Part shown: one piece after another, positions 6,520-11,133 of the stretch
How positions within the stretch are numbered: position 1 is the first letter of the stretch
Layout of the letters: each line of letters opens with the position of its first letter
NCBI GenBank assembly: GCA_002898315.1
Contig: BEHV01000004.1
Span: 62,001-126,000, forward strand
Reading direction: 5' to 3'
DNA: 64,000 bases
Source: a bacterium HR19
GTDB lineage: Bacteria > Calescibacteriota > Calescibacteriia > Calescibacteriales > Calescibacteriaceae
The notes under the pieces: model-generated
Told to the model about the DNA's origin: nothing
The model's database searches: none
Seen by the model: only the letters and a program-made list of their open reading frames with translations
Position numbers and translations under genes: made by a program

Positions 6520-7350
6520 TCAGCCTATCTTTGGACTTGAAAGAGTTCCCTTTAACCTTATTGTCTGAGAAGGTATGTTCAAAAGGTTTGTCTTGAGTTC
6601 AAAAGTTAGGTCTATTTGGGACTCAAAGAACGGATTTTTTATGATCAGCGAGCCCTTGCCACTTCCTTCTATATTACCCCCTCTCATCTCAAATCTATCT
6701 AATGTCATCACCCCATTTTTTATAGTCACTTCTGCATTTACCTTCCCAAGAGAAAACTCTCCCTCAACGGGGACATGAAGCTTATTTGTGTTTTTCAATA
6801 CAATAATGGTTTTATCTTTATCTGATGAAGACAGGAGGAATTTTCCTTCAAGAGAGTTTGGGGTTCTTATATCACCATTTAGTTTTAGTTCTATCTTCAA
6901 GTTTCCTTTTCCGCCGAGGTCAAAAATACTCATAAGCTCTTCGCTACTTATATCTCCTGTCAAATAAACAGATGATAAACTCATTTTTTCTGGACGAAAA
7001 ATATTTTTAGCGGTAAAGTTTATTGTCAATACAGATTGTTCTGTTTTGAGCTTCAAAGACCCCTTGAATTTTCCAAAAACCAAGTACAAAGGAGAAAAAA
7101 GAGAAGGAGAAATTTTCATTTCTTTGAAATGTATTTCTTTTCCTTCGCGAGGGCGGATTTCAACTCCCACAAGTTTAACTCCAAAAGGAAAAAACGAGAA
7201 ACCAGCACTTTCAATATGTATAATGTCGCTCTTTGAGTTGATAAAATCTACAAAATTGCTCCACGGGAAAAAAATAACTGAACCAAACAACACACCCCAG
7301 AAGAAAACAATAAAAAGCAAAAAAAACCTTTTCAGCTTTGAACTCATCAT
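6520..7350 (-). CDS. gspN: GspN-like type II secretion / AsmA-like protein
   Basis: A 276-residue protein with one N-terminal membrane helix (about residues 8-30) followed by a beta-rich periplasmic region. The pattern IESAGFSFFPFGVKLVGVEIRP and later GNLKIELKLNGDI...GGNIEGSGKGSLII resembles the GspN group of type II secretion proteins, which have an AsmA-like fold. It is separated from other secretion genes, although a GspI-like pilin gene lies at about 32 kb. The GspN call is from overall layout, not from a decisive motif. Two adjacent ATG codons make the exact start uncertain by one residue. Confidence 0.55.
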   Translation of the reverse strand: MMSSKLKRFFLLFIVFFWGVLFGSVIFFPWSNFVDFINSKSDIIHIESAGFSFFPFGVKLVGVEIRPREGKEIHFKEMKISPSLFSPLYLVFGKFKGSLKLKTEQSVLTINFTAKNIFRPEKMSLSSVYLTGDISSEELMSIFDLGGKGNLKIELKLNGDIRTPNSLEGKFLLSSSDKDKTIIVLKNTNKLHVPVEGEFSLGKVNAEVTIKNGVMTLDRFEMRGGNIEGSGKGSLIIKNPFFESQIDLTFELKTNLLNIPSQTIRLKGTLSSPKIG

Positions 7351-7384
7351 TAATACAGGTAAAACTCTCTCAAAAGAAAATAAA

Positions 7385-7390
7385 TAAATT
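7385..7390 (+). promoter_or_regulatory. -10 box of first cheW
   Basis: TAAATT ends 7 nt before the ATG at 7398. It lies inside the longer reading from 7338, so it argues against that start. Confidence 0.5.
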
Positions 7391-7397
7391 TATTATT

Positions 7398-7970
7398 ATG
7401 GAGCCAAGAAAAATAATGATTTTCAGAATAGGAGAAAGAAAGTTTGCAATAGGAATTGAGAAAATAAAAAGGATAAAAAAAGGCAAAGGAGCAGATTTCA
7501 AAATAACCGAAATAGAAGGAGCACCACCGTATATTATAGGAGTATCAGAAGTAGAAATAACGCGTGGAGAAAAGAAACTTATAACCCTTATTGACTTCAA
7601 AAAACTTATTGAGATGAAAAAGATTGAGATACAGGAAGATGATGAAGAAATAAAAAAAATGCAAGAAAAAAACAAATCTCAAACAAAAGTATTGAAAGCA
7701 GAAGATGAAGGAGATACAGGCAAAGATAAAAGGAAAATCTTTATGATAGTTTCCAGAGATAATAATGAATTCGTAGGTGTTCTCATAGATGAACCAGAAG
7801 ACATAAAAGAGTTAGACGAAAGAAATTCAAAGATTTATCCGCCACCGAAGATAAAAAATGTCAAAGACCTATTTGAATCAATAGTCATACTTCAAAATGA
7901 AAAAGGTGAAGAAGAGCAGAGAATATTACTGCTTAATCCTGATTCAATAATAGAGATGGCTGGACTATAA
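7398..7970 (+). CDS. cheW: CheW-like chemotaxis adaptor (first copy)
   Basis: A 190-residue CheW-domain protein, which would link chemoreceptors to the histidine kinase CheA. It has the typical opening MIFRIGERKFAIGIEKIKRI, an IIGVSEVEITRGEKKLITLIDFKKL core, and a late VGVLIDEPEDIKELDE segment. Between the two halves, about residues 73-113, lies an unusually charged Lys/Glu insert that normal CheW (about 150 residues) lacks. I place the start at ATG 7398, because a TAAATT box precedes it by 7 nt; a longer reading from 7338 would cover this promoter-like element. A second CheW gene lies 2.6 kb downstream. Confidence 0.82.
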   Translation: MEPRKIMIFRIGERKFAIGIEKIKRIKKGKGADFKITEIEGAPPYIIGVSEVEITRGEKKLITLIDFKKLIEMKKIEIQEDDEEIKKMQEKNKSQTKVLKAEDEGDTGKDKRKIFMIVSRDNNEFVGVLIDEPEDIKELDERNSKIYPPPKIKNVKDLFESIVILQNEKGEEEQRILLLNPDSIIEMAGL

Positions 7971-8023: not shown

Positions 8024-9538
8024 ATGCTTGGATGGATAACAAGATACAAAAGCGATAGAATGATGAAAATATGGAGTGAAGAAGAAAAGTTCAGAATATG
8101 GAAAGAAATTGAAGTAGCTGTTCTTGAAGGATGGGCAAAACTCGGAGTGGTTCCTCCTTCTGTTCCCGCAGAGCTGAAAAAAGTTGATGTAAAACCAGAA
8201 GAAGTAAGGCAAGAAGAAATAAAGACACGACACGAAGTCACCGCCTTCGTAAGAACCCTTGAAAAAAAGGTCTCACCCACAACCGCAAGATTTATTCACT
8301 TCGGACTGACATCATCAGATGTAATAGATACATCATTATCTATCCAGATGCGAAATTCAATCAGACTCCTTATAGAAGGTATTGAAGGAATAGAAAAAAT
8401 ACTTCTGGAATTAGCAGAAAGGTATAAAGATGTCATAGGAGTAGGAAGAACTCACGGAATACACGCAGAACCAATCTCCATTGGCATAAAATTTCTCTCA
8501 CACTTCGCAGAGTTCAGAAGAGCAAGAAGAAGATTACTCATAGCAGAAGAAGAAATATCAGTAGGGAAAATTTCAGGAGCGGTAGGTATATATAGCACAG
8601 TCCCCCCAGAAGTTGAAGAATATGTCCTCCAAAAATTTGGTCTGAGACCCGAAACGGTCGCAACTCAAGTTATACCAAGAGATAGACACGCTTTCTTCGG
8701 ATTAGCATGTGCCCTTCTTGCAGGTGCAATAGAACGAATTGCTCTGAACTTGCGACTACACCAAATAACAGAAATAGATGAAATAAGAGAGCCATTTGAA
8801 GAAGAGCAAACCGGTTCATCGGTTATGCCACACAAAAGAAACCCAATATTATCTGAAAATCTCACTGGTATATCAAGAATAATAAAAAGCTCTGTTACGG
8901 CGCTCCTTGAAAATATACCTCTTTTCATGGAAAGAGATATTTCTCATTCATCGGTAGAAAGAGTTATCTTGCCAGAAATATGCATACTCCTTGATTTCGC
9001 TCTTGGTAGATTAAAACTTCTTCTTGAAGGAATTCAGGTAAACGAAGACAAGATAAAGCAGAACTTGCAAATATCTAAAAATCTCATTCTTTCCTCAAGA
9101 GCTTTATCTGAACTCGTAATGCTCGGATTTGACAGAGAAAAAGCTTACAAACTAATTCAGAAAGCATCTTTTGACACAATAGAAGGGAAGTTTGATGACT
9201 TCTTATCTGCACTTATACACTACATTGAAAAAGAAGATAAGAAAACAGCAGAAAAACTCAAAGAAAAACTTACCCCCCTCAAACTCCCCTATATCAACCA
9301 AATTTTCGTAAGAGCAGAAAATATGCCGGTTGAAGTAAAAGTAAAAAAGAGAAGAGATATTTTTGACCCAGAAGGGAAAGCGATAAAAGATAGATTAACC
9401 AAACTCGGATACGATGTCCGTGATGTGAAAGTTGGAAAGGTCTTTGAGATATGGATGAAAAATCACAGAAAAGAAATGATAGAAGATGTATTCGTAAATC
9501 CTATCGTAGAAACATACGAAATAGAAATAAAAGATTGA
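8024..9538 (+). CDS. purB: Adenylosuccinate lyase fused to a PurS-like domain
   Basis: The first ~430 residues are adenylosuccinate lyase, which cleaves SAICAR and adenylosuccinate in purine synthesis. Motifs are THGIHAEPISIG near residue 147, and the superfamily signature with flexible catalytic loop, GSSVMPHKRNP, near 265-275. Known bacterial PurB is about 430-475 residues; this protein has 504. The tail, about residues 434-504, reads like PurS, the small subunit of FGAM synthase: DPEGKAIKDRLTKLGY, then VKVGKVFEI, then NPIVETYEIEI. This is a two-step fusion within one pathway. The ATG has a TAACTT box 7 nt upstream and no Shine-Dalgarno. Confidence 0.93.
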   Translation: MLGWITRYKSDRMMKIWSEEEKFRIWKEIEVAVLEGWAKLGVVPPSVPAELKKVDVKPEEVRQEEIKTRHEVTAFVRTLEKKVSPTTARFIHFGLTSSDVIDTSLSIQMRNSIRLLIEGIEGIEKILLELAERYKDVIGVGRTHGIHAEPISIGIKFLSHFAEFRRARRRLLIAEEEISVGKISGAVGIYSTVPPEVEEYVLQKFGLRPETVATQVIPRDRHAFFGLACALLAGAIERIALNLRLHQITEIDEIREPFEEEQTGSSVMPHKRNPILSENLTGISRIIKSSVTALLENIPLFMERDISHSSVERVILPEICILLDFALGRLKLLLEGIQVNEDKIKQNLQISKNLILSSRALSELVMLGFDREKAYKLIQKASFDTIEGKFDDFLSALIHYIEKEDKKTAEKLKEKLTPLKLPYINQIFVRAENMPVEVKVKKRRDIFDPEGKAIKDRLTKLGYDVRDVKVGKVFEIWMKNHRKEMIEDVFVNPIVETYEIEIKD

Positions 9539-9563: not shown

Positions 9564-10580
9564 ATGAGAGAAAATCTTCTGATTTTTGTAATCGGAGCTA
9601 TTTTTATAGCAATAATATTTTTTGCATGCGGAAAAAAAGAGAGCTCAAAAAGAAATTTTTCTCTTGCGGTATGGGCAGAATTCTTACCTTATGAAGAATA
9701 CGAAAAAATCTATGATAAACTCCAAAAACTTGATGTTGAACTATTTTTAGCGATAAGAGAAGGAGATTTTCCACACCCTTCTCTACAAAAAATAAAGTAT
9801 AGAGCATGGCTACTTCTTAAAAAAGAAAAGGGCTACTGGTTATCTGTTCGCAATGCGGAAGATTTCTTTAAACTTGTGAAGGATTTTCTGAACTTATACA
9901 AATCAGAGTGGATAGCCCTTGATTTTGAACCCCCGTATGAATTCGCAACAAAAATAACAGAAAATTTTTTTGAATCCCTATCAGAAATTATCCCGCCAGA
10001 AGAAGTTTATATAAACGGAAAAGCAAAAATAGAAGAAATTGTAAAATTCTCGCACGAAAAAGGAGCAAAAGTTCTTTGCGTTTTCCCAAACTTCGTTTTA
10101 GATGACCTCGTCCAAAAATCAGAAAATTTTCAAAAGATGTTAGGAATACCCGTACCGAAAGATTGCGATGAATACTCATTTATGATATACTCAACAATAA
10201 TAAAAGGATTAGCCGAAAAAATCCTCAAACTAAAAATAGATTTTCCTGAATATATTGTGTGGGACTACGGCAAAGATGCCTTTCATATTTTTGGAGATAA
10301 ATCTGCTTTATCTATTGGGCTTGTAGGAAAAGATTCTTTCGGCAACGAAGGTTATAAAGATGTTGAAGGACTTATAAAAGATATCTCAGCAGGACTTGCA
10401 GTAGGCATAAAGAAATTTCATATATGGACCGTTGATAACATGAAAGACGAGAACGGGAATTGGCAGATAGAAAAATGGCTTGACATAAGCTATGTCTCCC
10501 CCATCAGCCCCCCGGAAGATTCAGGACTAAAAAATTTAAGGGAGTTTCCTCTATCAATTGCCAAATCAAAAGTTAAATAA
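9564..10580 (+). CDS. Putative lipoprotein, possible TIM-barrel hydrolase-like domain
   Basis: A 338-residue protein beginning with a hydrophobic signal ending in FFACG, a plausible lipobox, so it is probably lipid-anchored. The body has alternating strand/helix segments such as SLAVWAEFLPYEEY, KYRAWLLLKKEKGYWLSV, WIALDFEPP, AKVLCVFPNFVLDD and KFHIWTVDNM, which look like a beta/alpha barrel of the kind seen in glycosidase-like proteins. I do not recognise a family, and no catalytic pair is certain. It starts 25 nt after purB, yet has its own TAAAAT box 5 nt before the ATG, so it is probably transcribed from its own promoter as well. Confidence 0.7.
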   Translation: MRENLLIFVIGAIFIAIIFFACGKKESSKRNFSLAVWAEFLPYEEYEKIYDKLQKLDVELFLAIREGDFPHPSLQKIKYRAWLLLKKEKGYWLSVRNAEDFFKLVKDFLNLYKSEWIALDFEPPYEFATKITENFFESLSEIIPPEEVYINGKAKIEEIVKFSHEKGAKVLCVFPNFVLDDLVQKSENFQKMLGIPVPKDCDEYSFMIYSTIIKGLAEKILKLKIDFPEYIVWDYGKDAFHIFGDKSALSIGLVGKDSFGNEGYKDVEGLIKDISAGLAVGIKKFHIWTVDNMKDENGNWQIEKWLDISYVSPISPPEDSGLKNLREFPLSIAKSKVK

Positions 10581-10608: not shown

Positions 10609-11133
10609 GTGTATATGGAAGAAAGAAAAAACGAGCTTACCCTACCCGGAACATTATTAGAACAAAAAATAATATGTGCAAAGATAGGAAAAGAAATATA
10701 TGGGTTCAAGATAGAATACCTTGAAGAGATAATAAAAATGAGCAGAAAAAAACTCGTCCTACCCTCAGCATTAAAACATCTCAAAGGTATAATACTTCTC
10801 AAAGGAAACATAGTTCCCGTAATAGATATCCTCTCACTTTTTGAAATAGGGGCAGTAGATGATGACATAGATACGAAAATAGGTATTGTGGTAAAAGTTC
10901 ACGGAGAGAAATATATTTGCATAATAGCAGATGATGTTTTCATAGAAACATTCTCACCCGCTTCTCTTGCAGAATCACCAAAAATAGGTATAAAATACAA
11001 AGAAGCAATAGAAGGTATAGGAAAATCATCAAAGGGAATTATAATAGTTCTGAAACCGGAGGAAATAATAGAAAGGCACAGAACTCTCTCTGGGATAAAA
11101 TTAGAAGAAAAGTTAGAACAGGCAAAATCTTAA
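10609..11133 (+). CDS. cheW: CheW-like chemotaxis adaptor (second copy)
   Basis: A compact CheW domain of about 172-174 residues. Visible blocks are IICAKIGKEIYGFKIEYLEEIIKM, HLKGIILLKGNIVPVIDILSLF (the classic CheW core), and CIIADDVFIETFSPA. It differs strongly from the copy at 7398, lacking that protein's charged insert, so the two may serve different receptor arrays. Two starts are possible: GTG at 10609, which sits 5 nt after a TAAAAT box, or ATG at 10615, 11 nt after it. The box distance favours GTG. Confidence 0.85.
   Translation: MYMEERKNELTLPGTLLEQKIICAKIGKEIYGFKIEYLEEIIKMSRKKLVLPSALKHLKGIILLKGNIVPVIDILSLFEIGAVDDDIDTKIGIVVKVHGEKYICIIADDVFIETFSPASLAESPKIGIKYKEAIEGIGKSSKGIIIVLKPEEIIERHRTLSGIKLEEKLEQAKS

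What the first reader, a model, noticed from the sequence alone, without database searches (positions are those of the whole stretch)
9323..9538. PurB with a PurS-like C-terminal domain
Purine enzymes PurB and PurS are normally separate proteins. After about residue 433 the protein continues with a roughly 70-residue PurS-like sequence (DPEGKAIKDRLTKLGY, VKVGKVFEI, NPIVETYEIEI). A joined PurB-PurS could tether FGAM synthase and adenylosuccinate lyase, though they act at non-adjacent steps. If no stand-alone PurS exists in this genome, the tail must serve PurL-PurQ.
Basis: partly seen in the sequence, partly recalled or inferred. Interest (0 to 1): 0.72.

Follow-up and report, generated by a model that had tools for sequence, protein, structure and literature searches.

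The report
Fused purine enzymes PurB and PurS
In a little-known phylum of uncultured bacteria, a purine-making enzyme (PurB) is permanently joined to PurS, the small connector subunit of a different purine-making enzyme, and the same joining appears to have arisen separately in another group of bacteria.

Summary
Confirmed. The ORF at 8024-9538 (+, 504 aa) is a complete adenylosuccinate lyase (TIGR00928, 404.6 bits, cut-off 326.2) that runs in frame, with almost no linker, into a PurS domain (PF02700, residues 436-502, 59.6 bits, cut-off 22.2; TIGR00302 over cut-off). The fusion is in all five held genomes of the phylum (Ca. Calescibacteriota, named through two relatives), across three genera. 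PurS evolves under purifying selection (dN/dS mostly 0.12-0.25). The window genome, only 82% complete, has no other PurS hit, one PurB, a small PurL without a PurS part, and a separate PurQ, so the tail is most likely the PurS of FGAM synthase. The pur genes found are dispersed, so the fusion looks like a relic of an ancestral purB-purS neighbourhood, which other bacteria still show. A second PurB-PurS fusion, with a longer linker and fuller PurS, occurs in 12 of 14 genomes of an unrelated family; the PurB tree rejects one origin only marginally (AU p 0.036). PurC-PurS fusions and PurS-PurS tandems also occur. Tethering FGAM synthase to the lyase is inferred; AlphaFold models were too weak to test it. 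Verdict: a real, conserved, apparently convergent domain architecture that I did not find described; new variant of a known kind.

The parts
8024..9538 (+). whole fused gene purB-purS, 504 aa, stop TGA
8024..9322 (+). PurB (adenylosuccinate lyase) part, residues 1-433; Lyase_1 9-285, ADSL_C 354-417 (below that model's cut-off), signature loop GSSVMPHKRNP at residues 264-274
   Evidence: 1c3u aligns to residue 432
9311..9322 (+). junction RAEN, essentially no linker
9323..9538 (+). PurS domain, residues 434-504, keeping DPEGKAI, VKVGK and NPIVE motifs, with the loop and start of the second helix about 8-10 residues shorter than usual

Best explanation
The gene encodes a true PurB-PurS fusion protein. 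The N-terminal part is the organism's only adenylosuccinate lyase. The C-terminal part is the PurS subunit of its FGAM synthase, normally a free small dimer that bridges small PurL and the glutaminase PurQ. It arose when an upstream purB and an adjacent downstream purS were joined by loss of the stop codon in an ancestor of Ca. Calescibacteriota; the remaining pur genes are now dispersed. Because bacterial PurB is a tetramer and PurS acts as a dimer, the fusion most likely anchors PurL-PurQ on the lyase, making a fixed assembly of step 4 with the lyase steps (SAICAR to AICAR, and adenylosuccinate to AMP). Shown: fusion, conservation, selection, apparent lack of another PurS, presence of small PurL and PurQ. 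Inferred: dimer formation by the tails, binding of PurL-PurQ, any kinetic or regulatory benefit.
For: HMM matches over curated cut-offs to both parts. Fusion in all five held genomes of the phylum, 62-95% identical to the window's protein, three genera. dN/dS of the PurS part 0.12-0.25 in pairs where dS is finite. No other PurS in four of five genomes; PurL is the small type and starts without a PurS-like part, PurQ is separate; the other lyase hits are a FumC/AspA-type protein and ArgH. purC and purM present on other contigs. Ancestral-like order purB-purS-purQ-purL in G015 with a ~60-base purB-purS gap. An internal start is not conserved: G003 lacks the Met at the PurS start.
Against: No biochemical data. 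Genomes are 82-86% complete. The PurS part is trimmed before its second helix and evolves faster than PurB, so its contacts may have changed. AlphaFold models were of low confidence. Steps 4 and 8 are not adjacent, so channelling is not expected.
Confidence: 0.8

Rival explanations
1. The fusion is functionally neutral: two neighbouring genes were joined, both parts work as they would apart, and the link merely fixes dosage; no stable PurB-PurL-PurQ assembly with a benefit of its own exists.
For: PurS is also found joined to PurC (f47), to itself and inside long PurL frames, which suggests that many partners are tolerated and that operon neighbours are joined by chance.
Against: Kept through the whole sampled phylum while the other pur genes looked at lie scattered, and apparently evolved a second time with PurB.
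Confidence: 0.3
2. PurS is also made as a free protein, by internal initiation at ATG 9323 or by proteolysis, so that the fusion is only partly a fusion.
For: An ATG sits exactly at the PurS start in four of five genomes.
Against: The fifth genome has no ATG there; its only nearby start codon is a TTG inside the first strand. In the second fusion lineage L115 has no start codon within 40 codons before the PurS core. No clear ribosome-binding site is seen upstream of 9323 (by eye).
Confidence: 0.12
3. The PurS-like tail no longer serves FGAM synthase and has become a structural or regulatory module of PurB, with another PurS hidden in the missing part of the genomes.
For: Genomes 82-86% complete; tail shortened; one bin (G001) has another PurS-PurS gene next to another PurL.
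Against: Four genomes lack any other PurS while PurL, PurQ, PurC and PurM are found in all five. Core PurS motifs are conserved. The G001 contig may be contamination (bin 5%).
Confidence: 0.08

Closest known systems
Stand-alone PurB (adenylosuccinate lyase, TIGR00928; structures 1c3u/1c3c, 8jbd)
   Same: full-length domain, signature loop and active-site motifs present; hit over cut-off
   Different: carries a PurS domain at its C-terminus
Stand-alone PurS (PF02700, TIGR00302; structures 1t4a, 2cuw, 3d54 chain B)
   Same: same family by HMM and by sequence match to solved PurS
   Different: covalently attached to PurB; shorter by about 8-10 residues before and at the second helix
Long PurL (PurS-like N-terminal part, PurL and PurQ in one chain) and PurS-PurS tandem proteins
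   Same: also PurS covalently joined to another purine protein
   Different: there PurS is joined to its own enzyme complex or to itself, here to an enzyme of a different pathway step
PurC-PurS fusion (f47, L061/L063) and PurB-PurS fusion of family f248 (L082), both found here
   Same: PurS joined to the C-terminus of another purine enzyme
   Different: different partner (PurC) or, in f248, a distinct PurB lineage, a linker of about 25 residues and a nearly full-length PurS

Membership tests
PurB, adenylosuccinate lyase | TIGR00928 equivalog score over curated cut-off | tested here: met
   404.6 bits vs 326.2
PurB, adenylosuccinate lyase | fumarase-superfamily signature loop and conserved His-containing GRTHG motif | tested here: met
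   GSSVMPHKRNP and GRTHGIHAEP present; SSxMPHKxNP and GRTHG kept in the five genomes
PurB, adenylosuccinate lyase | homotetramer with lyase activity | not testable with these tools
   needs protein
PurS, FGAM synthase subunit | PF02700 over gathering score and TIGR00302 over cut-off | tested here: met
   59.6 vs 22.2 and 44.5 vs 39 bits
PurS, FGAM synthase subunit | small PurL and separate PurQ in the same genome | tested here: met
PurS, FGAM synthase subunit | PurS fold and dimer | tested here: inconclusive
   AlphaFold models pLDDT 47 and 45; strand-helix order of the tail in the full model agrees but confidence is too low
PurS, FGAM synthase subunit | forms a complex with PurL and PurQ | not testable with these tools
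   needs protein

The most novel reading that the evidence does not exclude
PurB-PurS is the core of a fixed bacterial purine assembly in which four fused chains carry two PurS dimers and so two PurL-PurQ units, physically coupling nitrogen insertion at step 4 with the lyase that also ends the AMP branch; the architecture was selected independently in two bacterial lineages.
Probability: 0.4. Interest if true: 0.7.

Novelty: new variant of a known kind. Interest (0 to 1): 0.5.

Why it matters
Whether bacteria physically organise purine synthesis has been hard to test because proposed contacts are weak. A fusion that is universal in the sampled members of a phylum and apparently arose a second time elsewhere points to a specific pair (PurS with PurB) whose proximity is at least tolerated and possibly favoured, and it gives a ready-made stable construct for structural work. 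It also matters for annotation: a search for short purS genes would call FGAM synthase incomplete in these genomes.

Tried and rejected
Assembly or frameshift artefact: rejected, same fusion in five genomes. Chance similarity of the tail: rejected by HMM scores. G015 seemed at first to be another PurB-PurS fusion, but its ORFs are separate genes about 60 bases apart. G141 (280 aa frame) and G336 (404 aa) were only long open frames in GC-rich DNA upstream of a normal PurS, not fusions. A single origin for both PurB-PurS fusions: AU test p 0.036 against, different linkers, and stand-alone PurS in other families of the second phylum. A first PurB tree with wrongly trimmed rows was discarded and rebuilt; a first protein alignment of the five took a wrong frame for L004 and was redone. 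Paper searches found no description of a PurB-PurS fusion in the open library, which does not cover subscription journals. The organism name behind family f248 could not be obtained.

Full report
Observation. The open frame 8024-9538 (+) encodes 504 residues. Its first part is adenylosuccinate lyase: TIGR00928 404.6 bits against a cut-off of 326.2 over residues 6-417, Pfam Lyase_1 E 8e-49, and a solved PurB (1c3u) aligns over residues 5-432. From residue 434 it is PurS: PF02700 E 3.4e-16, 59.6 bits against 22.2; TIGR00302 44.5 bits against 39; solved PurS chains match by sequence, best 2cuw E 6.5e-7. The PurB part reaches its natural end (residue ~432) and the PurS part starts at its natural start (M434), with practically no linker.

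Not an artefact. The genome (1.88 Mb, 22 contigs, 82% complete) belongs to a phylum with five held genomes; all five carry the fusion, the others at 95, 71, 63 and 62% identity. Two relatives are public records, one of them Candidatus Calescibacterium nevadense, phylum Candidatus Calescibacteriota. An assembly or sequencing error would not recur in five genomes. Purifying selection on the PurS part is clear (dN/dS 0.12-0.25 in nine pairs with finite dS; PurB part 0.08-0.17; many dS values are near saturation, so these ratios are rough).

Genome context. In the window genome PF02700 finds only this place. The same is true in three of the other four genomes; the fourth bin, with 5% contamination, has a PurS-PurS gene next to a second PurL on an 8.5-kb contig, possibly from another organism. 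PurL is the small type (TIGR01736 766.9 bits) and begins without a PurS-like part; PurQ is separate. purC and purM are present. These genes lie on different contigs (C1, C9, C3, C16; the fusion on C4); the fusion's neighbours in the window include two CheW-like genes and no purine gene next to it. The other two superfamily hits in the genome are a class II fumarase/aspartase-type lyase and ArgH, so this is the sole PurB found.

Other bacteria. A survey of 386 genomes, mostly one or two per family, found PurS in 246. The strongest matches (listed) are nearly all in short frames of about 80-180 aa. The weaker ones, mostly re-listed, are short genes, PurS-PurS tandems of about 150-200 aa, or PurS-like parts in ~1000-aa frames of the size of long PurL. 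Some genomes, mainly second members of families, were not re-listed, so the survey is nearly but not fully complete. Real fusions with other enzymes were PurC-PurS (two genomes of f47, Pfam SAICAR_synt 290 bits plus PurS 92 bits) and one more PurB-PurS, in G348 (536 aa, TIGR00928 413 bits, PurS PF02700 44 bits). In the phylum of G348, 12 of 14 genomes of family f248 have PurS in frames of 512-574 aa (eight checked as PurB matches), while nearly all other families that have PurS carry it in short frames. In G348 the fusion is followed by an overlapping purQ start.

Origin. G015 keeps purB, purS, purQ and purL in that order, with about 60 bases between purB and purS. G018 and G036 also have purS just downstream of purB. 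Loss of the stop codon between such neighbours would make the fusion. In a 38-row PurB tree the two fusion groups are apart; the nearest row to the Calescibacteriota group, on a long branch, is a stand-alone PurB (L030, 99/99) whose genome has a stand-alone PurS. Forcing all fusions into one clade costs 12.9 log units, AU p 0.036, a marginal rejection. The linkers (none versus about 25 residues) and PurS lengths differ. Two independent origins are thus likely, not proven.

Internal start. An ATG sits at the PurS start in four genomes but not in G003, and in one f248 member (L115) there is no start codon for 40 codons before the PurS core. Free PurS made by internal initiation is therefore unlikely to be general.

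Mechanism. From established knowledge, PurS is a dimer needed for small PurL and PurQ to work (also stated in PMC3815217 and PMC3261824), and bacterial PurB is a tetramer (own knowledge). With no other PurS found, the tail most likely serves FGAM synthase while attached to the lyase, placing PurL-PurQ on PurB. The steps are not adjacent, so scaffold, dosage or stability effects are more likely than channelling. This part is inference; AlphaFold with the three sequences allowed gave mean pLDDT 45-47. The strand-helix pattern of the tail in the full model agrees with PurS but the confidence is too low to count.

Literature. Searches in the open library found no description of PurB-PurS. PMC3261824 describes other purine fusions in archaea (PurN-PurH1, PurE-PurE, PurC with a radical-SAM part), and the passages read mention none between PurB and PurS. 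Subscription journals and general protein databases were not searched, so such proteins may already sit in databases unremarked.

Noticed in passing
L082 115-1725 and L110-L117: A second PurB-PurS fusion, family-wide (12 of 14 genomes of f248), with a ~25-residue linker and DTEAK in place of DPEGK, followed in G348 by an overlapping purQ; its PurB is only distantly related (about 25-35% identity) to the best lyase hits in the other families of that phylum, which suggests transfer of the purB-purS-purQ set.
   Followed up: partly
L061 1492-2445 (-), L063 1492-2502 (-): PurC-PurS fusion of 318 aa in two genomes of one family (f47).
   Followed up: partly
L036 1495-1959 (-): PurS-PurS tandem protein of 154 aa beside a second PurL in G001, on a small contig that may be contamination; similar tandems occur in many other families.
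   Followed up: partly
window 7338-7970, 9564-10580 and 10609-11133: Two CheW-like genes flank the purB-purS gene and an unassigned ORF (9564-10580, no Pfam or NCBIfam match).
   Followed up: no
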